A DNA stretch of 64,000 bases from a virus. Below are positions 8,423 to 28,864 of the stretch, piece by piece. A program made the position numbers and the translations under genes. The notes under the pieces are model-generated. The model made no database searches. It was not told the origin of the DNA and saw nothing but the letters and a program-made list of their open reading frames with translations. Where the stretch lies: the IMG/VR virus record IMGVR_UViG_3300044568_002742, positions 1 to 64,000 of that record. The stretch is one strand, 5' to 3'. Within the stretch, counting starts at the first letter, position 1. Every line of letters begins with the position of its first letter.

Positions 8423-8450
8423 TTGACAGCCTGAATTAATATGTTATAAT
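8423..8450 (+). promoter_or_regulatory. Sigma-70-type promoter
   Basis: TTGACA (8423-8428), 16 nt spacer, TATAAT (8445-8450). Drives 8481-8828. Confidence 0.75.
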
Positions 8451-8480
8451 AACCATTCATTAATCAACTTGGAGCATGAC

Positions 8481-8828
8481 ATGGCATATATGAATCAAGA
8501 ACGTAAGAAAGCAATCGCGCCGGCAGTAGCTGCGGTATTGAAGAAGCATGGTGTGAAGGGCAGCTTAGCGGTCCGGCACCATTCCACCTTAGTGTTGAAT
8601 TTACGTTCTGGTAAGATTGATTTCGATACTAGCTACGGCCGTAGTGTGAATAATTATTGGTATAAAGAGCACTATACCGGACCGGCGTTATCCTTCTTGA
8701 ATGAAGTCATGCCATTATTGAATACTGGTAACCATGACCGATCGGATATTCAATCTGATTACTTTGATGTTGGTTGGTATGTTGATATCAATATTGGTCA
8801 ATGGGATAAACCTTATATCTTGGAATAA
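8481..8828 (+). CDS. Conserved phage protein, LPD29-like
   Basis: 115 aa. LKKHGVKGSLAVRHHSTLVL followed by SGKIDF resembles a small domain common in phages (similar to LPD29, by memory of the motif only). Soluble. Start chosen from GGAGCATGAC-ATG. Confidence 0.7.
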   Translation: MAYMNQERKKAIAPAVAAVLKKHGVKGSLAVRHHSTLVLNLRSGKIDFDTSYGRSVNNYWYKEHYTGPALSFLNEVMPLLNTGNHDRSDIQSDYFDVGWYVDINIGQWDKPYILE

Positions 8829-8832
8829 ACAT

Positions 8833-8861
8833 TTGACAGTACTGGCTAGTAGTGGTATACT
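8833..8861 (+). promoter_or_regulatory. Sigma-70-type promoter with inverted repeat
   Basis: TTGACA (8833-8838), 17 nt spacer, TATACT (8856-8861); GGCTAGTAGT in the spacer pairs imperfectly with ATACTATCC. Confidence 0.75.
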
Positions 8862-8886
8862 ATCCATTCATTCATCAGGGGGTTTT

Positions 8887-9018
8887 ATGTATATTGTACA
8901 TTATTGGGCAAAATGTTCTATTGTGGGTGAATATCTCGATCATCAAAAATTTGATGATTATGAGATGGCGAGGAAGTTTGCTAGGAAGCATGGCGAACGG
9001 GTAATGAGAATATTATAA
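8887..9018 (+). CDS. Small early protein
   Basis: 43 aa, not recognised (MYIVHYWAKCSIVGEY...). It starts after GGGGG at 8887; the longer upstream ORF lies in another gene and its promoter. Confidence 0.65.
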   Translation: MYIVHYWAKCSIVGEYLDHQKFDDYEMARKFARKHGERVMRIL

Positions 9019-9019
9019 C

Positions 9020-9048
9020 TTGACAACTGCCAAGGATGGCGGTATAAT
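9020..9048 (+). promoter_or_regulatory. Sigma-70-type promoter, hairpin spacer with AGGA loop
   Basis: TTGACA (9020-9025), 17 nt spacer, TATAAT (9043-9048). CTGCCA-AGGA-TGGCGG pairs with one wobble. It drives repeat cassette 1. Confidence 0.75.
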
Positions 9049-9064
9049 GTCAAGATGGAAAACA

Positions 9065-9125
9065 CTTGCTAGGATGGCATGTTGGCAGTCAATGCATATC
9101 CAGTAATTTCAAAGGTAGGTTGGTT
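9065..9125 (+). ncRNA. Repeat cassette 1 (small RNA or micropeptide)
   Basis: It shares TAGGATGGCATG, then GGCAGTC..., then CCAGTAATTTCAAAGGTAGG with four other copies. A reading frame MLAVNAYPVISKVGW runs from 9080 and here continues to about 42 codons. Whether the RNA or the peptide is the product is open. Confidence 0.5.
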
Positions 9126-9266
9126 GTTATTTGACATAAATGCGAAGCAAGTTGGTCTGGCCATATATGTCTTCCCTTGGCGGGCTTCACTTCTAATCCT
9201 TAGATGATGTGTCTATTATACAGCATAGTTTATTCATGTCAATAGGTAGAATAAAATAAAATAAAG
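9126..9266 (+). other. Gene-free stretch after cassette 1
   Basis: Apart from the C-terminal extension of the cassette reading frame (to about 9205) no gene is seen. GAAGC and GCTTC around 9150-9190 could pair as a weak hairpin. Confidence 0.4.
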
Positions 9267-9294
9267 TTGACAAGATGTTTTGATGTGTTATACT
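9267..9294 (+). promoter_or_regulatory. Sigma-70-type promoter
   Basis: TTGACA (9267-9272), 16 nt spacer, TATACT (9289-9294). Drives 9324-9527. Confidence 0.75.
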
Positions 9295-9323
9295 ATGTAC
9301 AACTTAAACGAAGTGGAGCAAGA

Positions 9324-9527
9324 ATGATGGAAGATGATAGATTTACACCTTCAGATTATATGTCTAATGCGGAGTATATGGCTGAAGCATTATTTCAGTA
9401 TGCTAGTGTATATGGTGAAGAGCGTCAAGATGAGGAATGGATATCTTCCCCATATGATACTTGGGAGAAAAACCCGCATTATAGAGGATTGCCAGGACGT
9501 CATCCAGAAGAAGATTACGACGAATAA
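9324..9527 (+). CDS. Small acidic early protein
   Basis: 67 aa, not recognised, strongly acidic with many Tyr and Met. GGAGCAAGA precedes the ATG pair at 9324/9327. Confidence 0.7.
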   Translation: MMEDDRFTPSDYMSNAEYMAEALFQYASVYGEERQDEEWISSPYDTWEKNPHYRGLPGRHPEEDYDE

Positions 9528-9531
9528 AAGA

Positions 9532-9561
9532 TTGACAACAATGGCTAGTAGGTGATATACT
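9532..9561 (+). promoter_or_regulatory. Sigma-70-type promoter with 10 bp inverted repeat
   Basis: TTGACA (9532-9537), 18 nt spacer, TATACT (9556-9561). ATGGCTAGTA (9541-9550) pairs perfectly with TACTAGCCAT (9558-9567). Confidence 0.85.
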
Positions 9562-9586
9562 AGCCATTCACTCATTGGAGCATATC

Positions 9587-9841
9587 ATGGAATTAAAACA
9601 ATTCAAACAAGAACTTAAAGCACTAGGTTTTAAGGTATCTATCAAGTCACAATCATATGGTCGTCATGCAACATATATTCATAAAGGAATGGATGAAGCA
9701 TTGACCTTTAATGTATTCACGCCAGAGCGTCTTAAACGATGGACACCATTACGGGAATGGCAAACTGCTAATCAAGTACGACTTGGGGTATTACGTCAAA
9801 GAGAACAAATTCATGGATTATGTAATCTAGTAATCAATTAA
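9587..9841 (+). CDS. Small basic early protein
   Basis: 84 aa, not recognised. Lys/Arg-rich N terminus (KQFKQELKALGFKVSIKSQ). GGAGCATATC leader. Confidence 0.72.
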   Translation: MELKQFKQELKALGFKVSIKSQSYGRHATYIHKGMDEALTFNVFTPERLKRWTPLREWQTANQVRLGVLRQREQIHGLCNLVIN

Positions 9842-9844
9842 TAC

Positions 9845-9873
9845 TTGACAACTGGTTAGTATTACCCTATACT
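9845..9873 (+). promoter_or_regulatory. Sigma-70-type promoter with inverted repeat
   Basis: TTGACA (9845-9850), 17 nt spacer, TATACT (9868-9873). CTGGTTAGTAT pairs with ATACTAGCCAG with one wobble, loop TACCCT. Confidence 0.82.
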
Positions 9874-9900
9874 AGCCAGAACATTCATTAGGAGCAGAAT

Positions 9901-10278
9901 ATGAGAGATTACACTACCTTATTGGAAACCACACGTGACCAGTTTGACATCGTTGTAGATAAGGCATACGAGGATGGTATTCATCCAAGAGATTGTTTTG
10001 ATGATAGCATTGATCCAGAAACCAATAAGCCATACTTTGACATTGATCAGATGTGTAGAGATATTGATGATGGTGACTTGGATTGGTTTTTCTTACGCAC
10101 ACGAGTATTCTATAAAGGTGTAGAACTTGCCGAAGAATTCTTAGGTGGATGCATGTATAAAGATGCCATTGATGTATTGACAGATGGTACAGCGGAGGAT
10201 CAAATTGAGCAAGCATTATATTCAGCAAAAAATGAAGCAAAGATATTAAAAGATATGTTTGCTTCTTTGGAAGTTTAA
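9901..10278 (+). CDS. Acidic early protein
   Basis: 125 aa, not recognised. Many Asp residues (DDSIDPETNKPYFDID; CRDIDDGDLDWF). GGAGCAGAAT leader. Confidence 0.75.
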   Translation: MRDYTTLLETTRDQFDIVVDKAYEDGIHPRDCFDDSIDPETNKPYFDIDQMCRDIDDGDLDWFFLRTRVFYKGVELAEEFLGGCMYKDAIDVLTDGTAEDQIEQALYSAKNEAKILKDMFASLEV

Positions 10279-10312
10279 TGTTATACTAGCCATTCACTTT
10301 TAGGAGCAGAAC

Positions 10313-10501
10313 ATGAATGAGAACGAAGTCCTTAAACAATGTCAAGCATATGCATTAGGTTATCACGATGGATTGACCTATGGCAATGAAGAAACCAGAG
10401 ATACCATTGATGATCCTTACCGTCATTATTATAAGATTGGTTATGAACGTGGCGTGAGTGATTATTGTGACGAAGCACATCCCGAAGATACTTTCAACTA
10501 G
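10313..10501 (+). CDS. Small early protein
   Basis: 62 aa, not recognised. It contains AYALGYHDGLTYG and YKIGYERGVSDY, two similar Gly-Tyr segments suggesting an internal duplication. A TATACT box (10282-10287) precedes it, with no clear -35. Confidence 0.7.
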   Translation: MNENEVLKQCQAYALGYHDGLTYGNEETRDTIDDPYRHYYKIGYERGVSDYCDEAHPEDTFN

Positions 10502-10512
10502 GAGAAGACATT

Positions 10513-11028
10513 ATGCCAAATTGGTGCCAGAACTATGTAACCTTAACACATGAAGACCCAGCGATGATTGAAAAAGCATTGGGGGCATTCAGGAAAGGTG
10601 ATTTCTTCAAAGAACTTGTTCCCAGACCAGAAGAGGAAGAAGAGAATTGGTATTCTTGGAACATTGATAATTGGGGTACCAAATGGGATGTTGGTGATGA
10701 AGATGGTGTAGGCGATGATATGGATGAGAATATGTTATCATTACATTTTGATAGTGCGTGGTCGCCACCTATTGCCGGATATGAGAAGTTAGAAGAACTA
10801 GGTTTTACAGTTGAGGGTTATTACTGTGAGGAAGGAATTGGATTTTGCGGATTGTATGCTTGTGGTCTTGATGATTGCTATGATATAGAGGGCGATTCCA
10901 AATGGGTAGTTGAGAACATCCCAAAAGAGATCGACGAGATGTTTGCAATATCTGAGAATATGGATATGTGGGAACAAGATCAAGCCGAAGAAGAACTTAG
11001 AAATAAATCAACTAACGAAGAACAATAA
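10513..11028 (+). CDS. YubB/DUF1281 ferredoxin-like domain protein
   Basis: 171 aa. MPNWCQNYVTLTH at the N terminus and NWGTKWDV with DSAWSPP are hallmarks of the YubB ferredoxin-like family found on plasmids and phages. Molecular function unknown. It starts 11 nt after the preceding gene, with its own GGAG. Confidence 0.85.
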   Translation: MPNWCQNYVTLTHEDPAMIEKALGAFRKGDFFKELVPRPEEEEENWYSWNIDNWGTKWDVGDEDGVGDDMDENMLSLHFDSAWSPPIAGYEKLEELGFTVEGYYCEEGIGFCGLYACGLDDCYDIEGDSKWVVENIPKEIDEMFAISENMDMWEQDQAEEELRNKSTNEEQ

Positions 11029-11029
11029 G

Positions 11030-11058
11030 TTGACAAGTGGCTAGTATTACCCTATACT
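11030..11058 (+). promoter_or_regulatory. Sigma-70-type promoter with 9 bp inverted repeat
   Basis: TTGACA (11030-11035), 17 nt spacer, TATACT (11053-11058). GGCTAGTAT pairs with ATACTAGCC, loop TACCCT. Confidence 0.85.
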
Positions 11059-11085
11059 AGCCAGAACATTCACTTGGAGCATATC

Positions 11086-11346
11086 ATGAAAAACTTAAAC
11101 ACCTATATTGTACAACAAAACTTTTGGAGAGGTTATGCCAACTTACCATTGTTTGATATCAAGAACTTATCCGCCAGTGATGTAACTGAACTGGCTGATG
11201 CATTAAGTAGCAACTTATCACCAGAGAACTTACATTGTGATGGTGAGATCACCATTACCGAAGCACGCGCCAAGTATGCGTATTACCTTAAGGTAATCCG
11301 TGAATTGGAAAAAGTAGGACATCACTTCACTATTACTGATCTTTAA
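11086..11346 (+). CDS. Small early protein
   Basis: 86 aa, not recognised, mixed alpha helix with EITITEARAKYAYYLKVIRELEKV. GGAGCATATC leader. Confidence 0.72.
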   Translation: MKNLNTYIVQQNFWRGYANLPLFDIKNLSASDVTELADALSSNLSPENLHCDGEITITEARAKYAYYLKVIRELEKVGHHFTITDL

Positions 11347-11349
11347 TAC

Positions 11350-11377
11350 TTGACAGATCTGGCTGGTATGTTATACT
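11350..11377 (+). promoter_or_regulatory. Sigma-70-type promoter with 11 bp inverted repeat
   Basis: TTGACA (11350-11355), 16 nt spacer, TATACT (11372-11377). CTGGCTGGTAT-GTT-ATACTAGCCAG pairs with one G-T. Confidence 0.85.
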
Positions 11378-11404
11378 AGCCAGAACATTCATTAGGAGCA
11401 GAAC

Positions 11405-11689
11405 ATGTACAAGAAAGAAATGTTAAAGTTATTAAAGGCTAATGTTGGCAAGGGTGTAAGTTTCTACCTTGGTAGCACTTATATGTCCCCGTATAAGGAC
11501 AACTGGTATATCCTACCATTCACCAATGATGATTTACTCAGGGTAGTTTCACTTGACAGCGATAAAAAAGCATGGGTTACTGATCCAGATACCGTTATTA
11601 CTGATACGACATTCAAGCCAAAAAACATAATGACATTCTCTATTACTCATTTTAGAATTGATCAATTAGTTGGTGTAACTATTTTTTAA
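11405..11689 (+). CDS. Early protein
   Basis: 94 aa, not recognised. Beta-rich with repeated Asp-Thr (DPDTVITDTTF). GGAGCAGAAC leader. Confidence 0.72.
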   Translation: MYKKEMLKLLKANVGKGVSFYLGSTYMSPYKDNWYILPFTNDDLLRVVSLDSDKKAWVTDPDTVITDTTFKPKNIMTFSITHFRIDQLVGVTIF

Positions 11690-11716
11690 TAACTAGCCAA
11701 TTGGGGGCATCACATC

Positions 11717-11971
11717 ATGGCATTATGTAAAGTAGCAAAAGAACATTACAATCTCTTACAAGCAATGAAGTATCAATGGGAGAATCCGCCAGCGGGTTTT
11801 AATTCCCAATATGATGCCGTCAAGGCAGAGAAGCATAAACGAGTTGAGAAGTTAGTCAAGGCTGGTTTAGATGCTTATCATTCAACCTTGAAGCGAGTTG
11901 GTATGGACGAGTATTATGATTTGATGGATGCTCGTGAAAAAGAGTTGCGATTACTATATAGTGGGGTATAA
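11717..11971 (+). CDS. Helical basic early protein
   Basis: 84 aa, not recognised, Lys- and Glu-rich helices (YDAVKAEKHKRVEKLVKAG). GGGGGC leader, no separate promoter, so probably co-transcribed with 11405. Confidence 0.7.
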   Translation: MALCKVAKEHYNLLQAMKYQWENPPAGFNSQYDAVKAEKHKRVEKLVKAGLDAYHSTLKRVGMDEYYDLMDAREKELRLLYSGV

Positions 11972-11972
11972 T

Positions 11973-12134
11973 ATGTTAAAACGATATATGGTAGTGTTAG
12001 AATTACGGGTAGAGGATGAAGAAGCCATTGACTTTACTTGGTTGGAGGAAGTCATTGGTGAACATCTTACTGAGGGTGGTGGTGAACACGTTAAGGTATC
12101 ATGGCACAAGCCATATATCGAAGAAATATGTTGA
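11973..12134 (+). CDS. Small early protein
   Basis: 53 aa (MLKRYMVVLELRVED...), not recognised. It starts 1 nt after the previous stop. Its own TGA is part of the next TTGACA box. Confidence 0.68.
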   Translation: MLKRYMVVLELRVEDEEAIDFTWLEEVIGEHLTEGGGEHVKVSWHKPYIEEIC

Positions 12135-12158
12135 CATCATCTTTTAATCTGTTATAAT
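12131..12158 (+). promoter_or_regulatory. Sigma-70-type promoter overlapping a stop codon
   Basis: TTGACA (12131-12136), 16 nt spacer, TATAAT (12153-12158). Confidence 0.78.
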
Positions 12159-12189
12159 AATCACAACTTAAACGTAATTGGAGATCAAC

Positions 12190-12567: not shown

Positions 12568-12585
12568 ATATTATTAAGGAATGAC

Positions 12586-13353: not shown

Positions 13354-13382
13354 TTGACAAGTGGTTGGTATTACCGTATACT
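13354..13382 (+). promoter_or_regulatory. Sigma-70-type promoter with inverted repeat
   Basis: TTGACA (13354-13359), 17 nt spacer, TATACT (13377-13382). GGTTGGTAT pairs with ATACTAGCC through wobbles. Confidence 0.8.
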
Positions 13383-13408
13383 AGCCATTCACTTTTAGGA
13401 GCAATGAT

Positions 13409-14071: not shown

Positions 14072-14374
14072 ATGAATGAACCAATAGGTGCAAATGTCAA
14101 AATCAAATGGTTGGATGAAACATTCCATCCAGAACATGAAGTTGAAACATATTGGGTACACTTCTCATTCAGTGAAGAACCAGACTTCTCTGAATGTACT
14201 GGGGAGGAAGTAGACCAACATGGAGTTCATGACTGGGATATATTCTATTATGTCGCTAATGAGAAAGAATTAGAAGACCTGATGAATGATGATCCGTATG
14301 ATGGTTATGTGATATTGGATTACAAATTAGTTTATAGCATTGAAGAAATGTTAATTAATAAAAGAAATTCTTGA
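14072..14374 (+). CDS. Acidic early protein
   Basis: 100 aa, not recognised. Asp/Glu-rich with EDLMNDDPYDGYVILDY. GGAGCAGACA leader. Confidence 0.72.
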   Translation: MNEPIGANVKIKWLDETFHPEHEVETYWVHFSFSEEPDFSECTGEEVDQHGVHDWDIFYYVANEKELEDLMNDDPYDGYVILDYKLVYSIEEMLINKRNS

Positions 14375-14398
14375 CAAATGTGTCTGGTATGTTATACT
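14371..14398 (+). promoter_or_regulatory. Sigma-70-type promoter with 11 bp inverted repeat
   Basis: TTGACA (14371-14376), 16 nt spacer, TATACT (14393-14398). GTGTCTGGTAT-GTT-ATACTAGACAC: compared with the 11350 promoter, both arms changed together. Confidence 0.88.
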
Positions 14399-14425
14399 AG
14401 ACACAACATCAACTAGGAGCAGAAC

Positions 14426-14656: not shown

Positions 14657-14803
14657 CCGATTATTACTGTAAGGGACGATGCCTAAGAGGATGACCGTAT
14701 ATTTTGGGGTGGGTCAGCATCAATGAACCCCATTAGGGCAAGTCGCATTTTTGAATGGACACACTATATTTTTTTGGGTGTAGCCTTGCCAATATTAAGA
14801 TTA
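14657..14803 (+). ncRNA. Structured untranslated region, possible small RNA
   Basis: No ORF. GGGGT (14706-14710) pairs with ACCCC (14727-14731), and GGCAAG near 14737 can pair with CTTGCC near 14785. It runs into the terminator that follows, so it is either a long 3' UTR or a processed RNA. Confidence 0.4.
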
Positions 14804-14839
14804 GGATATAATAGAAACTACTATTATATCCTTTTTTTT
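14804..14839 (+). terminator. Rho-independent terminator
   Basis: GGATATAATAG, loop AAACTA, CTATTATATCC: a perfect 11 bp stem followed by eight T. Confidence 0.9.
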
Positions 14840-14853
14840 GTTTAAAATAAAGT

Positions 14854-15206: not shown

Positions 15207-15234
15207 TTGACAAATGTGTCTGGTATGTTATACT
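15207..15234 (+). promoter_or_regulatory. Sigma-70-type promoter with inverted repeat
   Basis: TTGACA (15207-15212), 16 nt spacer, TATACT (15229-15234). GTCTGGTAT-GTT-ATACTAGAC. Confidence 0.82.
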
Positions 15235-15263
15235 AGACTGACTTTAACAAAGGAGCAAATAAA

Positions 15264-15565: not shown

Positions 15566-15594
15566 TTGACAAGTGGTTATTATTCCATTATAAT
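15566..15594 (+). promoter_or_regulatory. Sigma-70-type promoter with perfect 11 bp inverted repeat
   Basis: TTGACA (15566-15571), 17 nt spacer, TATAAT (15589-15594). GTGGTTATTAT (15573-15583) pairs with ATAATAACCAC (15590-15600), loop TCCATT. Confidence 0.88.
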
Positions 15595-15622
15595 AACCAC
15601 AACATCAACCGAGGAGCAAATC

Positions 15623-17195: not shown

Positions 17196-17224
17196 TTGAC
17201 ATAATCAATATGAGCCATTATAAT
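17196..17224 (+). promoter_or_regulatory. Sigma-70-type promoter with perfect 20 bp palindrome
   Basis: TTGACA (17196-17201), 17 nt spacer, TATAAT (17219-17224). TGAGCCATTA and TAATGGCTCA meet without a loop (17211-17230), centred on the -10. Confidence 0.88.
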
Positions 17225-17253
17225 GGCTCATCAACAAATAGGAGCAAAATCAC

Positions 17254-18640: not shown

Positions 18641-18669
18641 TTGACAATGTGGTTATTACTCGATATAAT
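18641..18669 (+). promoter_or_regulatory. Sigma-70-type promoter with 10 bp inverted repeat
   Basis: TTGACA (18641-18646), 17 nt spacer, TATAAT (18664-18669). GTGGTTATTA pairs with TAATAACCAC. Confidence 0.85.
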
Positions 18670-18699
18670 AACCACAACATAAATTAACTGGAGCAGAGA

Positions 18700-19488
18700 A
18701 TGAATTTACTAGAAAGTGATGAACAAATTATGGAACGTCTTAGAGAACGATTTGAAATTCTCGAGGATATGACCAAAGCATGTAAGGCAGGCAAGGTACG
18801 GGCATTATTAGTTAGTGGTGCGCCTGGGGTAGGTAAGAGTTTCGGTGTAGAGAAAGTTCTAAGTGGACATGATGTATTCGCCACTATAGCACAAGACAAA
18901 TCACTTAAGAAATATGAAGTAGTTAAAGGTGCCATTACCGCACTGGGATTGTATGCCAAGTTATATGAATATAAAGGTGATAAGAACATATTGGTATTTG
19001 ATGATTGTGATAACTTGTTCTATGATGAATTATCATTGAACTTATTGAAAGCGGCATTGGATACAAGCGAGAAGCGTACATTAAATTGGAATGCAGAAAG
19101 TTATAAATTGAGAGATGAAGGCATTCCTAGTTCATTTGAATTCAAAGGCGGAGTGGTATTCATCACCAATGTAGATTTTGAACATATCCGTAGTAAGAAA
19201 TTGCGCGACCATTTAGCCGCATTATCTTCACGATGTCATTACTTGGATTTGACAATTCATAGTGAACGTGATAAGATTTTACGAATTAAACAGATCGTCG
19301 CTGATGGGATGTTAAATAAACATCAAATAACAGAAGAAGATAAAATTGATGTAGTGAACTTCATTACAGAAAATAAACAACACCTGAGAGAGTTGTCATT
19401 ACGTACAGTTATAAAATGTGCTGACTTGTGTGCTAGTTTCCCAGATAAATGGAAACGTGTCGCAGAAATGACATTAATGAAAAAGTAA
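18700..19488 (+). CDS. AAA+ ATPase of viral origin
   Basis: 262 aa. Walker A GAPGVGKS (about residues 40-47), Walker B ILVFDDCD, a sensor-1-like VVFITN with Asn, and later Arg residues (SSRCHYLDL) fit a small AAA+ ATPase. Related phage proteins exist, but the substrate is not known. It carries no DNA-binding domain that I can see. The anti-RBS RNA lies directly downstream, perhaps on the same transcript. GGAGCAGAGA leader. Confidence 0.82.
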   Translation: MNLLESDEQIMERLRERFEILEDMTKACKAGKVRALLVSGAPGVGKSFGVEKVLSGHDVFATIAQDKSLKKYEVVKGAITALGLYAKLYEYKGDKNILVFDDCDNLFYDELSLNLLKAALDTSEKRTLNWNAESYKLRDEGIPSSFEFKGGVVFITNVDFEHIRSKKLRDHLAALSSRCHYLDLTIHSERDKILRIKQIVADGMLNKHQITEEDKIDVVNFITENKQHLRELSLRTVIKCADLCASFPDKWKRVAEMTLMKK

Positions 19489-19489: not shown

Positions 19490-19680
19490 ACCCCCCCCCA
19501 GAGGCGCAAGCCTCAATAATAGATAAGTGAGTAGGATTGCTCCCTGAAAACTTATCCAATAAAGTATTGAATAGGAAGGATTGCTCCCCTGATAATTCAT
19601 TACTCCTGAGGACATTGTCCTCATTAACAAGCCCTAATATCGACGGTTGCTCCCCTAGATATCAGGGCTTTTTTTTGTTT
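19490..19680 (+). ncRNA. Multi-hairpin RNA with three anti-RBS loops
   Basis: No ORF. Hairpins in order: GAGGC-GCAA-GCCTC (19501-19514); GATAAGT/ACTTATC (19522-19556); TGAAT/ATTCA (19568-19599); GAGGAC-ATT-GTCCTC (about 19608-19622); AAGCCCT...AGGGCTT with T8 (terminator). The second, third and last each present TTGCTCC (19537-19543, 19581-19587, 19647-19653) between the stem arms. TTGCTCC is the exact complement of GGAGCAA, the ribosome-binding site of most early genes. Inference: a trans-acting translational repressor RNA, made from its own promoter or processed from the AAA+ transcript. Confidence 0.65.
19630..19677 (+). terminator. Rho-independent terminator of the anti-RBS RNA
   Basis: AAGCCCTAATATC pairs with GATATCAGGGCTT around a loop holding GGTTGCTCCCC, followed by eight T. 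Confidence 0.88.
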
Positions 19681-20452: not shown

Positions 20453-20481
20453 TTGACATGCTGGGTAGTATCATGTATACT
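20453..20481 (+). promoter_or_regulatory. Sigma-70-type promoter with perfect 11 bp inverted repeat
   Basis: TTGACA (20453-20458), 17 nt spacer, TATACT (20476-20481). CTGGGTAGTAT (20461-20471) pairs with ATACTACCCAG (20477-20487), loop CATGT. A GCTAGCTGT element lies at 20426-20434. Confidence 0.88.
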
Positions 20482-20507
20482 ACCCAGAACAAATGAAGGA
20501 AAAGACA

Positions 20508-22415: not shown

Positions 22416-22443
22416 TTGACTTAGTCCACGGATGGACTATAAT
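22416..22443 (+). promoter_or_regulatory. Sigma-70-type promoter, hairpin spacer with CGGA loop
   Basis: TTGACT (22416-22421), 16 nt spacer, TATAAT (22438-22443). TAGTCCA-CGGA-TGGACTA pairs perfectly. Confidence 0.85.
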
Positions 22444-22674: not shown

Positions 22675-22703
22675 TTGACAAGGGCAAGGATGCCCTGTAT
22701 AAT
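22675..22703 (+). promoter_or_regulatory. Sigma-70-type promoter, hairpin spacer with AGGA loop
   Basis: TTGACA (22675-22680), 17 nt spacer, TATAAT (22698-22703). AGGGCA-AGGA-TGCCCT pairs perfectly. Drives repeat cassette 2. Confidence 0.85.
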
Positions 22704-22710
22704 TACATCA

Positions 22711-22800
22711 TCAAATCACAGGGAAGCAATGGCAGGAAGCCATGTCGGCAGTCGATGCGTATCCAGTAGTTTCAAAGGTAGGTCGTCTTTAAAAAATAAT
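22711..22800 (+). ncRNA. Repeat cassette 2 (small RNA or micropeptide)
   Basis: Hairpin ATGGC-AGGAA-GCCAT (22729-22743), then GCA-GTCGA-TGC, then CCAGTAGTTTCAAAGGTAGG. Two nested frames exist: 26 codons from 22729 and MSAVDAYPVVSKVGRL from 22742. Confidence 0.55.
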
Positions 22801-23090: not shown

Positions 23091-23118
23091 TTGACATAAC
23101 ACAGGGACGTGTTATAAT
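23091..23118 (+). promoter_or_regulatory. Sigma-70-type promoter, hairpin spacer
   Basis: TTGACA (23091-23096), 16 nt spacer, TATAAT (23113-23118). TAACAC-AGGGAC-GTGTTA. Confidence 0.85.
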
Positions 23119-23408: not shown

Positions 23409-23437
23409 TTGACAAGGGCAACGGATTGCCCTATAAT
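23409..23437 (+). promoter_or_regulatory. Sigma-70-type promoter, hairpin spacer with CGGA loop
   Basis: TTGACA (23409-23414), 17 nt spacer, TATAAT (23432-23437). AGGGCAA-CGGA-TTGCCCT is a perfect 7 bp stem. Confidence 0.87.
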
Positions 23438-23662: not shown

Positions 23663-23669
23663 AGACACA

Positions 23670-23755
23670 TCAAATCAGGAAAGACATGCTAGGATGGCAT
23701 GACGTCGTAACAACGAGAGTCCAGCAATTTCAAAGGTAGCTTGTCTTTTAAAAAA
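23670..23755 (+). ncRNA. Repeat cassette 3 (divergent copy)
   Basis: Hairpin CATGC...GCATG (23685-23701) with AGGAT in the loop, then TCGT-AACA-ACGA, then CCAGCAATTTCAAAGGTAGC. The peptide frame of the other copies is interrupted (in-frame TGA), which favours an RNA product. Confidence 0.5.
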
Positions 23756-23769
23756 TAAAAAAAATAAAG

Positions 23770-23990: not shown

Positions 23991-24019
23991 TTGACAAGTG
24001 GTTATTATTCCATTATAAT
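23991..24019 (+). promoter_or_regulatory. Sigma-70-type promoter with inverted repeat
   Basis: TTGACA (23991-23996), 17 nt spacer, TATAAT (24014-24019). GTGGTTATTAT pairs with ATAATAATCAC through one wobble, loop TCCATT. Confidence 0.85.
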
Positions 24020-24051
24020 AATCACAACATCAACACTTTGGAGCAAATCGT

Positions 24052-24254: not shown

Positions 24255-24282
24255 TTGACAATGCACATGGACGTGCTATAAT
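24255..24282 (+). promoter_or_regulatory. Sigma-70-type promoter, ATGGAC loop class
   Basis: TTGACA (24255-24260), 16 nt spacer with GCAC-ATGGAC-GTGC, TATAAT (24277-24282). Confidence 0.85.
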
Positions 24283-24510: not shown

Positions 24511-24538
24511 TTGACATAGCACATGGACGTGCTATAAT
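24511..24538 (+). promoter_or_regulatory. Sigma-70-type promoter, ATGGAC loop class
   Basis: TTGACA (24511-24516), 16 nt spacer, TATAAT (24533-24538). TAGCAC-ATGGAC-GTGCTA, 6 bp. Confidence 0.87.
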
Positions 24539-24567
24539 GGTACATCATCAAAACTTTGGAGCAAACC

Positions 24568-24654
24568 ATGACAGTTATGCAAATGAACACCATAATACAT
24601 CTTGTTGGATTGGCGATAATCGCAATCGCAATCATAGTACATAAATTCTGCTAG
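24568..24654 (+). CDS. Membrane micropeptide
   Basis: 28 aa, one hydrophobic helix (IIHLVGLAIIAIAIIV), GGAGCAAACC leader. Its stop overlaps the AGGAGG of the next gene. Confidence 0.58.
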   Translation: MTVMQMNTIIHLVGLAIIAIAIIVHKFC

Positions 24655-24664
24655 GAGGTAATAT

Positions 24665-24856: not shown

Positions 24857-24870
24857 GAGATAATAAGAAC

Positions 24871-25098
24871 ATGGATACAAAAAAAGAAGAGGTTAGAGTA
24901 TTACTTTACCCTGTTGATGACTATGACCGTGAACAGGCGGAAGACATGGAAAACAAGGCATACACTATGGAAGAACTCAAAAGGGTATTGCCTGAAGATG
25001 TTATTAGTTATTCATTGGCGGACTTTATGAATGAGTGTAATGACCAAGAAATTGAATTAGAAGGTTATTGGTTAAGCTATATTAGGGTAGAACTATGA
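24871..25098 (+). CDS. Acidic early protein
   Basis: 75 aa, not recognised; resembles small phage proteins with YTMEELKRVL...YSLADFMNECND. AGGAGATAATAAGAAC leader decides the start. Confidence 0.7.
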   Translation: MDTKKEEVRVLLYPVDDYDREQAEDMENKAYTMEELKRVLPEDVISYSLADFMNECNDQEIELEGYWLSYIRVEL

Positions 25099-25120
25099 AT
25101 GCACACTGCTAGGAGATAAT

Positions 25121-25216
25121 ATGCCAACATTAGAAGATCGATATAATAGCTATTGCCATTTTGCTGAACAAATGGGCTGGTATGTTAAAACATTCGACGA
25201 ATGGCTAGACAGCTAA
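25121..25216 (+). CDS. Micropeptide
   Basis: 31 aa (MPTLEDRYNSYCHFAEQMGW...), AGGAGATAAT leader as for its upstream neighbours, so probably in the same operon. Not recognised. Confidence 0.58.
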   Translation: MPTLEDRYNSYCHFAEQMGWYVKTFDEWLDS

Positions 25217-25221
25217 AAAGA

Positions 25222-25249
25222 TTGACAAGTGGTTATTAGCTGGTATAAT
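25222..25249 (+). promoter_or_regulatory. Sigma-70-type promoter
   Basis: TTGACA (25222-25227), 16 nt spacer, TATAAT (25244-25249). Confidence 0.77.
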
Positions 25250-25280
25250 GACACATCATCAACATCAACGGAGCAAACAA

Positions 25281-25475
25281 ATGAAATTAACACCAGAGCA
25301 GGAATTATTTTTCGGCACAGAATTAGTAAGTCTATTGAACTTAAAGGAAAAGAATGGATTGTATAAAACTGACTTTGGTGTAAAGACAGCCAAATCATTG
25401 GGAGCAATGATTGAAAGTTTATATCACGCTCATATAGCAGACAATAAAGAAACCCATATTAATTCACAATTCTAG
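25281..25475 (+). CDS. Small early protein
   Basis: 64 aa, helical, not recognised. GGAGCAAACAA leader decides the start. Confidence 0.7.
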   Translation: MKLTPEQELFFGTELVSLLNLKEKNGLYKTDFGVKTAKSLGAMIESLYHAHIADNKETHINSQF

Positions 25476-25503
25476 TTGACATAGTACAAGGACGTGCTAT
25501 AAT
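25476..25503 (+). promoter_or_regulatory. Sigma-70-type promoter
   Basis: TTGACA (25476-25481), 16 nt spacer with TAGTAC-AAGGAC-GTGCTA (one wobble), TATAAT (25498-25503). Confidence 0.82.
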
Positions 25504-25532
25504 AACTCATCATCAACGAAAGGGGAAAAGCA

Positions 25533-25712
25533 ATGACTTATTATGACGTATGTTTTTGGGGCGGAAATTACTACACCAGAGAAGTAAGACCACATTCTAC
25601 CACAGTCTATATGGATACTGTAATATCATCACACGATGACCCCGACGAAGCTCAATTAGAAGCAGATCGCCTTCAAGCAGAATTTGAAAACGACCCAGCA
25701 AATTGGGAGTAA
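25533..25712 (+). CDS. Small acidic early protein
   Basis: 59 aa (MTYYDVCFWGGNYYTREVRP...), ending NDPANWE. GGGGAAAAGCA leader. The DNA encoding its end is repeated downstream of the next gene. Confidence 0.7.
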   Translation: MTYYDVCFWGGNYYTREVRPHSTTVYMDTVISSHDDPDEAQLEADRLQAEFENDPANWE

Positions 25713-25902
25713 TACCATGCAAAAATACCTTATAGCATTGCCAATATTCAAAGGCGGGATAGGTTTTAACCACCCCACAATATTAGTTAGCGCTGTTAAT
25801 AAAAGCGATGCCATAGCTATAGCAAGGCATTTAAAACCTGATTGTAATATAGGTGATGTCAAACAAGTCCATTACTAAAACGACCCAGCAAATTGGGAGT
25901 AA
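25690..25902 (+). repeat. Direct repeat flanking the 25717 gene
   Basis: ACGACCCAGCAAATTGGGAG followed by TAA occurs at 25690-25712 and 25880-25902. The first copy codes for the C terminus of 25533-25712. The second is non-coding, so the 25717 gene was inserted or a segment was duplicated. Confidence 0.75.
25717..25878 (+). CDS. Small early protein
   Basis: 53 aa (MQKYLIALPIFKGGIGFNHP...), not recognised. GGGAGTAATACC leader. It is flanked on both sides by a 23 bp direct repeat. Confidence 0.68.
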   Translation: MQKYLIALPIFKGGIGFNHPTILVSAVNKSDAIAIARHLKPDCNIGDVKQVHY

Positions 25903-25909
25903 AATAAAT

Positions 25910-25937
25910 TTGACATAGCACAGGGACGTGCTATAAT
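25910..25937 (+). promoter_or_regulatory. Sigma-70-type promoter, AGGGAC loop class
   Basis: TTGACA (25910-25915), 16 nt spacer with TAGCAC-AGGGAC-GTGCTA, TATAAT (25932-25937). Drives repeat cassette 4. Confidence 0.85.
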
Positions 25938-25940
25938 GTC

Positions 25941-26030
25941 ATCAAATCACAGGAAAGCAATGGCAGGAGGCCATGTCGGTAGTTAATACGTATCCAGTAG
26001 TTTCAAAGGTAACTCGTCTTTAAAAAAATA
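25941..26030 (+). ncRNA. Repeat cassette 4
   Basis: ATGGC-AGGAG-GCCAT hairpin (25960-25974), GTA-GTTAA-TAC, CCAGTAGTTTCAAAGGTAAC. Nearly identical to cassette 5. The frame MSVVNTYPVVSKVTRL starts at 25973. Confidence 0.55.
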
Positions 26031-26043
26031 TAAAAAATAAATG

Positions 26044-26071
26044 TTGACAAGTAGTAATTACCTGTTATAAT
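26044..26071 (+). promoter_or_regulatory. Sigma-70-type promoter
   Basis: TTGACA (26044-26049), 16 nt spacer, TATAAT (26066-26071). Confidence 0.8.
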
Positions 26072-26105
26072 AATCACAACATCTCAAAACGACTGGAGCA
26101 AGTCA

Positions 26106-26447
26106 ATGACCAAAGCTGAAATAATCGCATTATTGAACACTAATGACAAAGCTATCGCTAGAGCATTGGTGGTATTGAATGAAAGACAAACCGCAACAGA
26201 ACAGCACTCAGGTGCTACCATCAACCAAAATGGCGAGGGCTTTACACCAGCCGATGCCTATATGGGTACAAGTATGGCAAATGGCGTTATCAAGTATGGT
26301 AGATTGACCGAAAAGCAATTAGCATACTGGAGGCAACCAAACGCCAAAGGCACGCCACGTATCAACAAATACGCAGGTCAATTATTGGCTATCGCTCAGG
26401 CAAAGGCAAGATTGGCGATTGCCAATATGGAAAGAGAATTAGCATAA
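26106..26447 (+). CDS. Conserved phage protein
   Basis: 113 aa. TNDKAIARALVVLNERQTATEQ, GFTPADAYMGTSMANGV and RINKYAGQLLAIA mark a family present in many phages and plasmids; function unknown. GGAGCAAGTCA leader. Confidence 0.8.
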   Translation: MTKAEIIALLNTNDKAIARALVVLNERQTATEQHSGATINQNGEGFTPADAYMGTSMANGVIKYGRLTEKQLAYWRQPNAKGTPRINKYAGQLLAIAQAKARLAIANMERELA

Positions 26448-26452
26448 TGGTA

Positions 26453-26481
26453 TTGACAAGTGGCTATTACCATGCGATAAT
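26453..26481 (+). promoter_or_regulatory. Sigma-70-type promoter with 10 bp inverted repeat
   Basis: TTGACA (26453-26458), 17 nt spacer, GATAAT (26476-26481). GTGGCTATTA pairs with TAATAGCCAC. Confidence 0.82.
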
Positions 26482-26513
26482 AGCCACATCATCAACACAT
26501 TGGAGCAAATCAA

Positions 26514-26765
26514 ATGGCTAGAATCAACACCCTAACAAGTATGGCTGAAAGTTTACAAATTGAATTAATCTCACTAGAGGAAAAGTTCCTGCATAGAGCA
26601 ATGAACTTAAACCCGCACTTACCAATGGGTGACGGTTTTAAAAACCAATGGATTGACGAGCGACAAGCCATTCGCGCTAAACGAGCAGAGCTAGACAAAG
26701 TAATCAAAGAAATCGATGACCTAAATGGCAATGACCAATATCGAGAAAAATATCTACATTTTTAG
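26514..26765 (+). CDS. Helical early protein
   Basis: 83 aa, coiled-coil-like (RAIRAKRAELDKVIKEIDDLN). Not recognised. GGAGCAAATCAA leader. Confidence 0.72.
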   Translation: MARINTLTSMAESLQIELISLEEKFLHRAMNLNPHLPMGDGFKNQWIDERQAIRAKRAELDKVIKEIDDLNGNDQYREKYLHF

Positions 26766-26793
26766 TTGACATAGCACAGGGACGTGCTATAAT
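26766..26793 (+). promoter_or_regulatory. Sigma-70-type promoter, AGGGAC loop class
   Basis: TTGACA (26766-26771), 16 nt spacer with TAGCAC-AGGGAC-GTGCTA, TATAAT (26788-26793). Drives repeat cassette 5. Confidence 0.85.
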
Positions 26794-26796
26794 GTC

Positions 26797-26886
26797 ATCA
26801 AATCACAGGGAAGCAATGGCAGGAGGCCATGTCGGTAGTTAATACGTATCCAGTAGTTTCAAAGGTAACTCGTCTTTAAAAAAATA
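26797..26886 (+). ncRNA. Repeat cassette 5
   Basis: Almost the same sequence as cassette 4, including promoter class and A-rich tail. Micropeptide frame from 26829. Confidence 0.55.
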
Positions 26887-26909
26887 TAAAAAAATAAATG
26901 AAAATAAAT

Positions 26910-26937
26910 TTGACAAATGGTAATTACCTGTTATAAT
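26910..26937 (+). promoter_or_regulatory. Sigma-70-type promoter
   Basis: TTGACA (26910-26915), 16 nt spacer, TATAAT (26932-26937). Confidence 0.8.
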
Positions 26938-26967
26938 AATCACAACATCAACAAAGGAGCAAACCAA

Positions 26968-27075
26968 ATGATTGAAGATACATTAGCTTTTGCGGAATAC
27001 GAAGCCTATCTGGAATTTCAAGCCGAATTTAACGAGCCTTGGCCAGACTTAGCCGAGGAAATATTTTTCATCTAA
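26968..27075 (+). CDS. Acidic micropeptide
   Basis: 35 aa (MIEDTLAFAEYEAYLEFQAE...), highly acidic. Own promoter and GGAGCAAACC leader. Confidence 0.62.
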   Translation: MIEDTLAFAEYEAYLEFQAEFNEPWPDLAEEIFFI

Positions 27076-27079
27076 GGGA

Positions 27080-27107
27080 TTGACACAGCACATGGACGTG
27101 CTATAAT
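27080..27107 (+). promoter_or_regulatory. Sigma-70-type promoter, ATGGAC loop class
   Basis: TTGACA (27080-27085), 16 nt spacer with AGCAC-ATGGAC-GTGCT, TATAAT (27102-27107). Confidence 0.85.
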
Positions 27108-27136
27108 GGTACATCATCAACAAAGGAGCAAACATC

Positions 27137-27592
27137 ATGGCAACATCACATCAAGTAACTGTATTCTTTAATCCCAGCCTACCCTTTTCAAAAGAAGACA
27201 AAGCCAAATATAAAAAGTTGAAATTATGTGCGGAGTGTACTGATGACTATATCTTTTTTGATCTAGACTCGGCAACAGATACCGCAGTTAAAAAATTCGT
27301 GGCAGACTTCAAAGAACTAAGTGGATTAGATAATCCAACCATACGGTATAATATATACATGGAAGCACCAGAATATACGTGGGATTTAATAGACTCTGAT
27401 GACTTCAATGAGGCATTTGCCAATCATTTCGGCAATGGTTACGACATAGTATGTGGTGATGAGTTTTTTGTAAGTGGCGATACCAGAGAGGAAGCCAAAG
27501 ACAAGTTAAAACAAGTTAAAGCATTTGTAAAAGAATATATAAAAAATCAAAAACGTAATAGACTGCTAACACGATTAGAACAATACGCCTAA
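27137..27592 (+). CDS. Early protein
   Basis: 151 aa, not recognised. Mixed fold with a basic C-terminal helix (KDKLKQVKAFVKEYIKNQKRNR). GGAGCAAACATC leader. Confidence 0.73.
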   Translation: MATSHQVTVFFNPSLPFSKEDKAKYKKLKLCAECTDDYIFFDLDSATDTAVKKFVADFKELSGLDNPTIRYNIYMEAPEYTWDLIDSDDFNEAFANHFGNGYDIVCGDEFFVSGDTREEAKDKLKQVKAFVKEYIKNQKRNRLLTRLEQYA

Positions 27593-27598
27593 TATTAC

Positions 27599-27626
27599 TT
27601 GACATAGTACATGGACGTGCTATAAT
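27599..27626 (+). promoter_or_regulatory. Sigma-70-type promoter, ATGGAC loop class
   Basis: TTGACA (27599-27604), 16 nt spacer with TAGTAC-ATGGAC-GTGCTA (one wobble), TATAAT (27621-27626). Confidence 0.84.
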
Positions 27627-27653
27627 GGTACATCATCAACAAAGGAGCAAATC

Positions 27654-27917
27654 ATGTTAGAAAACGTAAGCAATCTATCACCAGAAGAAGTTTTGAACTA
27701 TATCGAAATGCCAGTCCATGCCAGCCGTGTAATCAACGAATTAATGGATCAGGTAGCTGAACTCGAAACAACCGTAGAAACACTGGAAAATATTCAAAGC
27801 GACCTCGAAAATTACTATCATGACCTTGAACATATCATCAACCAAGACCGCGTCAATTATGATAATATCATAGCAGAGTTAAAGCAATTAAGCCATAGAA
27901 TGTATTTGACAATATAA
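27654..27917 (+). CDS. Coiled-coil early protein
   Basis: 87 aa. A long heptad-like helix (INELMDQVAELETTVETLENIQ...) indicates a coiled coil. GGAGCAAATC leader. Confidence 0.72.
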   Translation: MLENVSNLSPEEVLNYIEMPVHASRVINELMDQVAELETTVETLENIQSDLENYYHDLEHIINQDRVNYDNIIAELKQLSHRMYLTI

Positions 27918-27934
27918 CCATATGGAGCAAAGCA

Positions 27935-28237
27935 ATGGCAAAGAAAGACAATAAACAATTGATGATCGACCTAAATGCCTATAAGCAATTAGAACGCGAG
28001 GTGAAAGAGTTAAAAGCCCAATTATCTTCCTCTTATCATTTTGCACACCAAACCATAGACAAGGCATCAATCGATCGATTACTCGGTAGTGGTGTATTGT
28101 TAGAATTGACTGGCATAGGCGGTAAAGAAATTATCTCACCAGTAATGATCCTCAATGGATTGAGCAAAGAAACCATCGAGGCACTAAAGGCAGACTTCAA
28201 ACGAAGCTACGATTATGCAACTGAGTTAAGAGTGTAA
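27935..28237 (+). CDS. Early protein with coiled coil
   Basis: 100 aa, N-terminal coiled coil (YKQLEREVKELKAQL) then a mixed domain. GGAGCAAAGCA leader. The TTGACA at 27906 has no -10 at the normal distance, so it is probably co-transcribed with 27654. Confidence 0.7.
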   Translation: MAKKDNKQLMIDLNAYKQLEREVKELKAQLSSSYHFAHQTIDKASIDRLLGSGVLLELTGIGGKEIISPVMILNGLSKETIEALKADFKRSYDYATELRV

Positions 28238-28244
28238 AAAGAAT

Positions 28245-28273
28245 TTGACATATGGTTATTATTCCATTATAAT
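28245..28273 (+). promoter_or_regulatory. Sigma-70-type promoter with inverted repeat
   Basis: TTGACA (28245-28250), 17 nt spacer, TATAAT (28268-28273). TATGGTTATTAT pairs with ATAATAATCATA through one wobble. Confidence 0.85.
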
Positions 28274-28304
28274 AATCATAACATCAACACATTGGAGCAA
28301 ACGC

Positions 28305-28565
28305 ATGACACCAAGCAAATTAAAATGGGAAGTTCAAAACACCAACACGGATAAGTATTTTTTCACCAGAGATACCATGAAGTTCTTTGGCGATACCATG
28401 TCCAATTATGGCGTTAGAGCCAAACCAGTAATGGTCAATGGTCAGACCTGCTGGGAGCTTTATCGCAGACGAGCAGTAAAGAATAACATAATCGATTCAG
28501 CGTTTTTTGATGTTATTACATTCAAACGAGTAATTCCAAACGTCAGTATAGTGGAATGCTCATAA
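28305..28565 (+). CDS. Basic early protein
   Basis: 86 aa, not recognised; GQTCWELYRRRAVKNN in the middle. GGAGCAAACGC leader decides the start. Confidence 0.7.
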   Translation: MTPSKLKWEVQNTNTDKYFFTRDTMKFFGDTMSNYGVRAKPVMVNGQTCWELYRRRAVKNNIIDSAFFDVITFKRVIPNVSIVECS

Positions 28566-28571
28566 TAATAC

Positions 28572-28599
28572 TTGACAATGCACATGGACGTGCTATAAT
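28572..28599 (+). promoter_or_regulatory. Sigma-70-type promoter, ATGGAC loop class
   Basis: TTGACA (28572-28577), 16 nt spacer with GCAC-ATGGAC-GTGC, TATAAT (28594-28599). Confidence 0.85.
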
Positions 28600-28628
28600 G
28601 ACTCATCATCAACAAAGGAGCAAACACC

Positions 28629-28832
28629 ATGGCATCATTAATTACCGTTTCCAAAAAACCCAACTTCCAATCACAGCACCCGAACTCACCAAAGATGCTA
28701 TCAGCAATTTGCCTTCAAATATGCGGTGGTGGTCTGACCACTACACAAACCGCACAAGCAATGGAATTACAATCCAAAATACTGGCAAACGGCAAAGCAA
28801 CCAAGAACAAATATACCATCACACTAGCGTAA
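28629..28832 (+). CDS. Small basic early protein
   Basis: 67 aa, Lys/Gln/Thr-rich, not recognised. GGAGCAAACACC leader decides between two overlapping frames. Confidence 0.66.
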   Translation: MASLITVSKKPNFQSQHPNSPKMLSAICLQICGGGLTTTQTAQAMELQSKILANGKATKNKYTITLA

Positions 28833-28836
28833 ATGC

Positions 28837-28864
28837 TTGACAATGCACATGGACGTGCTATAAT
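28837..28864 (+). promoter_or_regulatory. Sigma-70-type promoter, ATGGAC loop class
   Basis: TTGACA (28837-28842), 16 nt spacer with GCAC-ATGGAC-GTGC, TATAAT (28859-28864). Confidence 0.85.

What the first reader, a model, noticed from the sequence alone, without database searches (positions are those of the whole stretch)
8423..28864. Early promoters whose spacer and -10 form inverted repeats that change together
Some 25 or more of about 45 TTGACA/TATAAT promoters contain an inverted repeat spanning spacer and -10. The sequence differs but pairing is kept: GGCTAGTAT/ATACTAGCC (11039), GTGTCTGGTAT/ATACTAGACAC (14380), GTGGTTATTAT/ATAATAACCAC (15573), CTGGGTAGTAT/ATACTACCCAG (20461), TGAGCCATTA/TAATGGCTCA (17211), TAGTCCA/TGGACTA (22422), AGGGCAA/TTGCCCT (23415), TAGCAC/GTGCTA (24516). 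Paired changes imply selection for the fold or dyad itself. Many loops are (C/A)GGA, TGGA or the complement TCCA. One fixed operator would keep its sequence, so a structural role is more likely. N4 hairpin promoters are the nearest known idea.
Basis: partly seen in the sequence, partly recalled or inferred. Interest (0 to 1): 0.9.

Follow-up and report, generated by a model that had tools for sequence, protein, structure and literature searches.

The report
RNA hairpins written over phage promoters
In this large phage, the short RNA hairpins that seem to close one gene's message share their DNA letters with the promoter of the next gene, so the paired letters change together but the hairpin is probably not part of how the promoter works.

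Summary
Of 49 distinct early promoters, 12 carry dyads scoring 9 or more (shuffles 0.06; arms swapped between promoters 1.7). Both hairpin classes covary in the window. A matching hairpin covaries in 16 orthologous promoters of relatives (99.4% of cells paired).

The interpretation shifts. The fold behaves like an RNA hairpin of the coding strand. With promoter hexamers excluded, stem mismatches are G·T 45 to A·C 7. Four-base loops are GNRA/UNCG in 12 of 21 on the sense strand and 1 of 21 on the antisense strand.

The hairpin does not belong to the promoter. It starts a median 11 nt after the upstream stop codon but slides from upstream of the -35 to the -10. It almost never lies in the next gene's own leader (1 seen, 16.7 expected). 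In the window, 21 of 35 promoters that directly follow an ORF have it, and 0 of 14 others do.

Best reading: an mRNA 3'-end or boundary hairpin sharing bases with the next gene's promoter, not an operator or N4-type promoter. The RNA fold is well supported; 3'-end protection is inferred, without transcript data.

The parts
8843..8866 (+). class B hairpin over promoter 8833-8861
   Evidence: TGGCTAGTA gtggta TACTATCCA, one mismatch
9026..9043 (+). class A hairpin, loop core AAGGAT, over promoter 9020-9048
   Evidence: ACTGCCA agga TGGCGGT with one G.T
9540..9568 (+). class B hairpin over promoter 9532-9561
   Evidence: 11 bp, sense dG -15.1
9852..9879 (+). class B hairpin over promoter 9845-9873
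   Evidence: 10 WC + 1 G.T
11038..11063 (+). class B hairpin over promoter 11030-11058
   Evidence: 10 bp
11358..11384 (+). class B hairpin over promoter 11350-11377
   Evidence: 11 WC + 1 G.T, dG -17.5
13360..13389 (+). class B hairpin over promoter 13354-13382
   Evidence: 9 WC + 3 G.T; sense dG -13.9, antisense -3.7
14379..14405 (+). class B hairpin over promoter 14371-14398
   Evidence: 11 WC + 1 G.T
15218..15238 (+). class B hairpin over promoter 15207-15234
   Evidence: 8 WC + 1 G.T
15573..15600 (+). class B hairpin over promoter 15566-15594
   Evidence: 11 bp
17210..17231 (+). class B-like hairpin (TATA of the -10 as loop) over promoter 17196-17224
   Evidence: 9 bp
18648..18676 (+). 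class B hairpin over the promoter of the AAA ATPase gene (18641-18669)
   Evidence: 11 bp
20461..20487 (+). class B hairpin over promoter 20453-20481
   Evidence: 11 bp
22422..22439 (+). class A hairpin, loop core ACGGAT
   Evidence: TAGTCC/GGACTA
22681..22696 (+). class A hairpin, loop core AAGGAT
   Evidence: AGGGCA agga TGCCCT
23096..23115 (+). class A hairpin, loop AGGGAC
   Evidence: ATAACAC/GTGTTAT, paired change relative to ATAGCAC/GTGCTAT
23415..23432 (+). class A hairpin, loop core ACGGAT
   Evidence: AGGGCAA cgga TTGCCCT
23998..24025 (+). class B hairpin
   Evidence: 10 WC + 1 G.T
24263..24276 (+). class A hairpin, short stem
   Evidence: GCAC atggac GTGC
24516..24535 (+). class A hairpin
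   Evidence: ATAGCAC/GTGCTAT
25232..25252 (+). weak partial class B hairpin
   Evidence: 6 WC + 1 G.T; sense dG -6.2, antisense -1.4
25481..25500 (+). class A hairpin
   Evidence: one T.G wobble
25915..25934 (+). class A hairpin
26460..26487 (+). class B hairpin over promoter 26453-26481 (GATAAT)
26771..26790 (+). class A hairpin
27085..27104 (+). class A hairpin
   Evidence: one C.A towards the outer end
27604..27623 (+). class A hairpin
   Evidence: one T.G wobble
28251..28280 (+). class B hairpin
   Evidence: 11 WC + 1 G.T
28580..28593 (+). class A hairpin, short stem
   Evidence: GCAC atggac GTGC (read from the sequence)
28845..28858 (+). class A hairpin, short stem
   Evidence: GCAC atggac GTGC (read from the sequence)
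14803..14840 (+). ordinary intrinsic terminator (12-bp stem + T run); the next promoter, 14854, has no dyad
19629..19678 (+). terminator-like stem + T run; the next promoter, 19687, has no dyad

Best explanation
The dyads are RNA hairpins of the coding strand that sit just after the stop codon of the upstream gene, at the boundary between two transcription units. The early region is so compact that the next gene's sigma-70 promoter is written over the same 30-40 bases. The promoter therefore fixes some letters of each arm, and the other arm must follow to keep the pairing. The hairpin exists only in RNA made from an upstream promoter, because it almost always lies before the next start site. 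It most likely forms or protects the 3' end of the upstream mRNA, by blocking 3'-to-5' exonucleases after Rho-dependent or untidy termination or after cleavage, and so keeps the small early mRNAs separate and stable. Shown by computation: dyad excess, covariation, coding-strand specificity, anchoring to the stop codon, exclusion from the next leader. Inferred: which enzymes act on it and that it stabilises 3' ends.
For: (1) Excess and covariation. (2) Coding-strand specificity, with scoring blind to strand: interior G.T 78 vs A.C 9 in 93 non-redundant hairpins of promoter-bearing gaps, against 275:179 for dyads in coding windows, Fisher p 3e-8. With all promoter hexamer bases excluded, 45 vs 7, and 28 hairpins vs 2 lean to G.T (p 9e-7). 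Four-base loops outside hexamers are GNRA/UNCG in 12 of 21 on the sense strand, 1 of 21 on the antisense strand. (3) Anchoring: start a median 11 nt after the stop codon (IQR 8-16); centre upstream of the -35 in 27, over it in 11, in the spacer in 39, in the -10 in 7, downstream in 2. (4) Exclusion from the next leader: 1 of 86 past the start site vs 16.7 expected. (5) Window: MFE at or below -7 in 21 of 35 promoters directly after an ORF vs 0 of 14 others, energy difference p 1.3e-6; relatives 68/309 vs 46/394, p 9e-6. Window promoters after a terminator or an ncRNA-like unit lack a clear dyad (9267, 14854, 17662, 19687, 23770, 26044, 26910). (6) Gap upstream of the ATPase gene: in different relatives the hairpin lies upstream of the -35, around it, in the spacer, or beside a -10 with no -35. 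(7) Intrinsic terminators are few in 20 kb, so read-through RNA is expected. (8) Rho-terminated transcripts are known to be trimmed back to a stem-loop (PMC9927376).
Against: No transcript map exists for any of these phages. In relatives only about a quarter of promoter-bearing gaps have a strong hairpin, and promoters with no called upstream ORF have them nearly as often (13% vs 17%; automated ORF calls). Gaps without a detected promoter also have some (14% vs 19%). Over all 49 window promoters the sense strand does not fold more stably than the antisense. Some window promoters directly after ORFs have none (8423, 12131, 18163). Class B position relative to the -10 is nearly constant within the window, as expected if the copies are related.
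Confidence: 0.62

Rival explanations
1. The hairpins are endonuclease processing sites (RNase III, as in T7 early mRNA, or another nuclease) that cut polycistronic early RNA into single-gene messages.
For: Placement between genes in sense RNA, often beside promoters. A T7 0.7-like kinase family match, annotated as regulating RNase III and RNase E, lies next to the early region at 31229-31855 (PHROG E 1.3e-13).
Against: Most stems are 8-12 bp with small loops, short for RNase III (own knowledge). The kinase match is absent from ten relatives' records searched, though some are fragments, and Pfam does not support it.
Confidence: 0.15
2. They are transcription terminators of a kind that needs little or no U-tract, insulating each promoter from upstream polymerase.
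For: Some relatives' hairpins look like classic terminators (AAAGACCCT...AGGGTCTTT). Promoters downstream of a true terminator lack the dyad.
Against: Only 9% have at least 5 T in the 8 nt after the stem; mean 2.5 T.
Confidence: 0.12
3. The hairpins bind an RNA-binding protein such as host CsrA/RsmA; the class A hexaloop ANGGAN with a 'GGA' loop is the CsrA-type motif (from memory).
For: Class A loops are ANGGAN on at least four unlike stems (CAC/GTG, GTCC/GGAC, GGCA/TGCC, GGGC/GCCC). GGA also sits in the hairpin loop of the five ncRNA-like copies.
Against: Class B and the relatives have no GGA-loop pattern. No CsrA in the 71-kb record. The class A copies are partly one family, so loop identity may be descent.
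Confidence: 0.06
4. The dyad is part of the promoter: cruciform or hairpin DNA read by a polymerase (N4-like), or a symmetric operator.
For: Overlap with the -35/-10 region; nearly fixed register of class B within the window.
Against: Coding-strand asymmetry of wobble pairs and loops; floating position; no shared sequence; absence from promoters not preceded by an ORF.
Confidence: 0.05

Closest known systems
T4 intercistronic CUUCGG hairpins (Tuerk et al. 1988, as cited in PMC8948821)
   Same: Very stable RNA hairpins, mainly in intergenic regions of a large phage, with free stem sequence and G-U pairs allowed; some relatives here have UNCG loops.
   Different: Loops here are mostly GNRA, CCAAAA-type or ANGGAN rather than UUCG, and the stems are systematically overwritten by consensus sigma-70 promoters.
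T7 RNase III sites next to phage promoters (own knowledge)
   Same: RNA hairpins at gene boundaries lying close to promoters.
   Different: T7 sites are longer, bulged RNase III substrates beside T7-RNAP promoters; here short perfect stems share the letters of host-type promoters.
Rho-terminated mRNAs trimmed back to a 3' stem-loop (PMC9927376)
   Same: A stem-loop that marks the stable 3' end left after exonuclease trimming.
   Different: Shown for a host operon; here proposed for dozens of phage gene boundaries and overlapping promoters.
N4 virion RNA polymerase hairpin promoters
   Same: A hairpin near the start site.
   Different: N4 uses a template-strand DNA hairpin (own knowledge); here the fold is coding-strand, floats, and comes with -35/-10 hexamers.
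Cluster K mycobacteriophage ESAS (PMC3203893)
   Same: Inverted repeats upstream of many phage genes.
   Different: ESAS arms keep a consensus sequence and sit beside a translation-start motif; here sequence is free and position follows the upstream stop codon.

Membership tests
N4-type hairpin promoter | hairpin on the template strand | tested here: not met
   wobble and tetraloop asymmetry favour the coding strand
N4-type hairpin promoter | hairpin at a fixed place relative to the start site | tested here: not met
   centre spans about -65 to +2.5 relative to the -10 across relatives
N4-type hairpin promoter | giant virion RNA polymerase gene | tested here: inconclusive
   largest ORF in the window 862 aa, a tail/virion-type match; the record is a fragment of a probably larger genome
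N4-type hairpin promoter | no host-type -35/-10 | tested here: not met
   TTGACA-16..18-TATAAT throughout
Sequence-specific operator | shared half-site sequence | tested here: not met
   arms vary freely; 99.4% pairing in 16 orthologues with five pairs changed on both sides
Intrinsic terminator | stable sense RNA hairpin | tested here: met
Intrinsic terminator | U-tract after the stem | tested here: not met
   at least 5 T in 8 nt in 9%
Intercistronic RNA hairpin (T4 type) | located in intergenic sense RNA | tested here: met
Intercistronic RNA hairpin (T4 type) | cUUCGg loop | tested here: not met
   UNCG is a minority; GCAA is commonest among 4-base loops
3'-end protecting stem-loop | mapped mRNA 3' ends at the hairpin | not testable with these tools
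   no transcript data
RNase III site | cleavage by RNase III | not testable with these tools
   stem lengths mostly below those of classic sites (own knowledge)
CsrA/RsmA site | ANGGAN hexaloop on a stem | tested here: met
   class A in the window only
CsrA/RsmA site | binding by CsrA | not testable with these tools
   CsrA not in the record; host unknown

The most novel reading that the evidence does not exclude
A clade of jumbo phages uses a compact, reusable boundary module in which a sequence-free 3' RNA hairpin and the next gene's consensus promoter share the same bases, so that dozens of small early genes are expressed as separate, individually protected messages without ordinary terminators.
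Probability: 0.4. Interest if true: 0.72.

Novelty: new variant of a known kind. Interest (0 to 1): 0.6.

Why it matters
If right, it shows how a phage packs the end of one message and the start of the next into about 35 bases, with two codes (promoter hexamers and RNA pairing) read from the same letters. It explains an apparent promoter motif as a read-through RNA feature, warns against reading dyads in promoters as operators, and gives a ready set of natural boundary modules to test. The blind wobble and tetraloop strand test is a general way to tell RNA hairpins from DNA dyads.

Tried and rejected
N4-like reading: no support. Operator: no shared sequence. Rfam: nothing credible. tRNAs: none. 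Megablast of the early region against phages: no match. Pattern search for the class A spacer in IMG/VR: two hits, not followed further. PA5oct early region: few such promoters and no clear dyads. A relative by the 224-aa early protein: only about 42% partial matches. Comparing sense and antisense folding energy over all promoters: no difference, probably because many promoters have no dyad and loops weigh in; replaced by the mismatch-type and tetraloop tests. Quasipalindrome template switching was considered: it could make perfect dyads but not GNRA/UNCG loops on one strand, stop-codon anchoring, or exclusion from leaders. Strand-biased mutation could make G.T pairs but not the loop bias. Some G.T pairs came from fixed promoter letters; the count was redone without hexamer bases and the result held.
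Full report
What was given. The window is part of a 71,067-base virus record. Its structural and replication genes resemble those of jumbo myoviruses (terminase closest to Sinorhizobium phage Phosso, Pseudomonas phage PA5oct and Agrobacterium phage Atu_ph07 at 44-50% identity; DnaB-type helicase, primase, UvsX, SSB). The early region, about 7-29 kb on the + strand, is a chain of very small genes, most with their own consensus promoter.

Is the observation right? Yes. I listed 51 promoters and scored inverted repeats with a scheme that treats both strands alike. Among the 49 distinct ones, 12 score 9 or more, against 0.06 with shuffled spacers and 1.7 when a spacer is joined to another promoter's right-hand side. 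Same-register class B promoters keep 97.4% of pairs with three pairs changed on both sides; class A likewise keeps 93.8% with three. Class B couples the fifth -10 base to the left arm: TATACT goes with G and TATAAT with T at the partner position.

Is it DNA or RNA? In RNA, G-U is a pair and A-C is not; the reverse holds on the other strand. A duplex operator, a cruciform or chance cannot tell the strands apart. I therefore scanned all gaps between co-directional genes in the window and about 80 relative loci (sharing the AAA ATPase at 18700-19488), penalising G.T and A.C equally. In 93 non-redundant hairpins from promoter-bearing gaps the interior mismatches are 78 G.T and 9 A.C; dyads in coding sequence give 275:179 (Fisher p 3e-8). 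Because some G.T pairs come from fixed promoter letters, I removed every pair touching a -35- or -10-like hexamer: 45 vs 7, and 28 hairpins vs 2. Independently, four-base loops outside hexamers are GNRA or UNCG in 12 of 21 when read on the coding strand and 1 of 21 on the other. These are RNA tetraloops; GNRA-type loops can also be stable in DNA (own knowledge), so a coding-strand ssDNA hairpin is not strictly excluded, but nothing else points to it.

Does it belong to the promoter? The promoter upstream of the ATPase gene is the clearest case. In 16 distinct relatives the hairpin exactly fills the spacer, ACAnnnnn-NNNN-nnnnnTGT before TATAAT, with 99.4% of cells paired, five pairs changed on both sides, and a covariation score of 0.571 vs 0.167 shuffled. 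But in other orthologues of the same gap it lies upstream of the -35 (L082), around it (L012, L024, L061, L086, L087), beside a -10 with no -35 (L017, L038, L078), or in the leader (L020, L031, L046). Over 86 hairpins, the start is a median 11 nt after the stop codon (IQR 8-16), whereas the centre ranges from about 65 nt upstream of the -10 to inside it. Only 1 of 86 is centred past the predicted start site, where 16.7 would be expected from random placement in the gap. So the hairpin follows the upstream gene and avoids the next gene's own message.

The window agrees. Promoters directly after an ORF: 21 of 35 have a sense hairpin of -7 kcal/mol or better; promoters overlapped by an ORF or not preceded by one: 0 of 14. 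Promoters after a true terminator (14854, 19687), or after one of five ncRNA-like units (9267, 22812, 23770, 26044, 26910), have no clear dyad or only a weak one. Divergent promoters in relatives: 0 of 9, too few to weigh.

How it most likely works. RNA reading through from an upstream promoter carries the hairpin about 11 nt after its stop codon. Most hairpins lack a U-tract, so they are not ordinary terminators. Rho-terminated RNAs are trimmed by exonucleases back to a stem-loop (PMC9927376), and an element of this kind would give each small early gene a defined, stable 3' end. The -35/-10 of the next gene lies on the same bases for economy of space. The fold, its strand, covariation and placement are shown; the 3'-end role and the enzymes are inferred. 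Endonuclease processing and unusual termination are the main rivals, and protein binding is possible for class A (ANGGAN loops, the CsrA-type motif), though CsrA is not in the record.

Compared with what is known. Phages, T4 above all, carry intergenic CUUCGG hairpins (PMC8948821), and T7 has RNase III sites close to promoters (own knowledge). N4 promoters and cluster K ESAS (PMC3203893) differ in strand, anchoring or sequence conservation. I found no description of a set of sequence-free, covarying RNA hairpins overwritten by consensus promoters, but the literature search was limited to open papers.

Weak points. All promoters and genes are predictions; ORF calls in relatives are automated; only about a quarter of relatives' promoter gaps have strong hairpins; gaps without a detected promoter have some too; the window's own copies are partly related, so the independent weight comes mostly from relatives.

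Noticed in passing
window 6198-6536: Ten perfect TTATCCACA DnaA boxes (7 on +, 3 on -) within 340 bases; possibly an origin or a DnaA-titrating site.
   Followed up: partly
window 6079-8079, also 20425, 21414, 29266: TGCTAGCTGT occurs 12 times, only on the + strand, sometimes as the extended -10 of a promoter (TGCTAGCTGTATAAT) and sometimes without one.
   Followed up: no
window 9049-9130, 22704-22800, 23663-23760, 25938-26035, 26794-26900: Five copies of an about 90-nt ncRNA-like unit directly after class A promoters, with a covarying hairpin whose loop holds GGA and an invariant TTTCAAAGGTA; no Rfam match.
   Followed up: partly
window 1-3720: Tandem array of small ORFs ending in a similar C-terminus (W-F-x-L-R-W) with repeated 'TTGGTTTTTGTTGAGGTGGT' spanning each gene junction.
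   Followed up: no
window 31229-31855 (-): 208-aa protein matching the PHROG of a T7 0.7-like kinase said to act on RNase III and RNase E (E 1.3e-13); not found in ten relatives' records, no Pfam match.
   Followed up: partly
window 57580-59449 (-): Terminase large-subunit ORF matches only the C-terminal third of the family profile and a homing endonuclease ORF lies next to it, suggesting an intron or intein.
   Followed up: no
window 4367-6063 (-): Two adjacent endonuclease VII-like proteins (only 4367-5224 searched) with many internal tandem repeats.
   Followed up: no
L017, L053, L071 and other relatives: Relatives' promoter spacers often hold CCAAAA or TTTTGG; several are loops of hairpins whose arms contain both the -35 and part of the -10 (ATAGCGCACTTGAC...GTTAAGTGCGCTAT).
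   Followed up: partly
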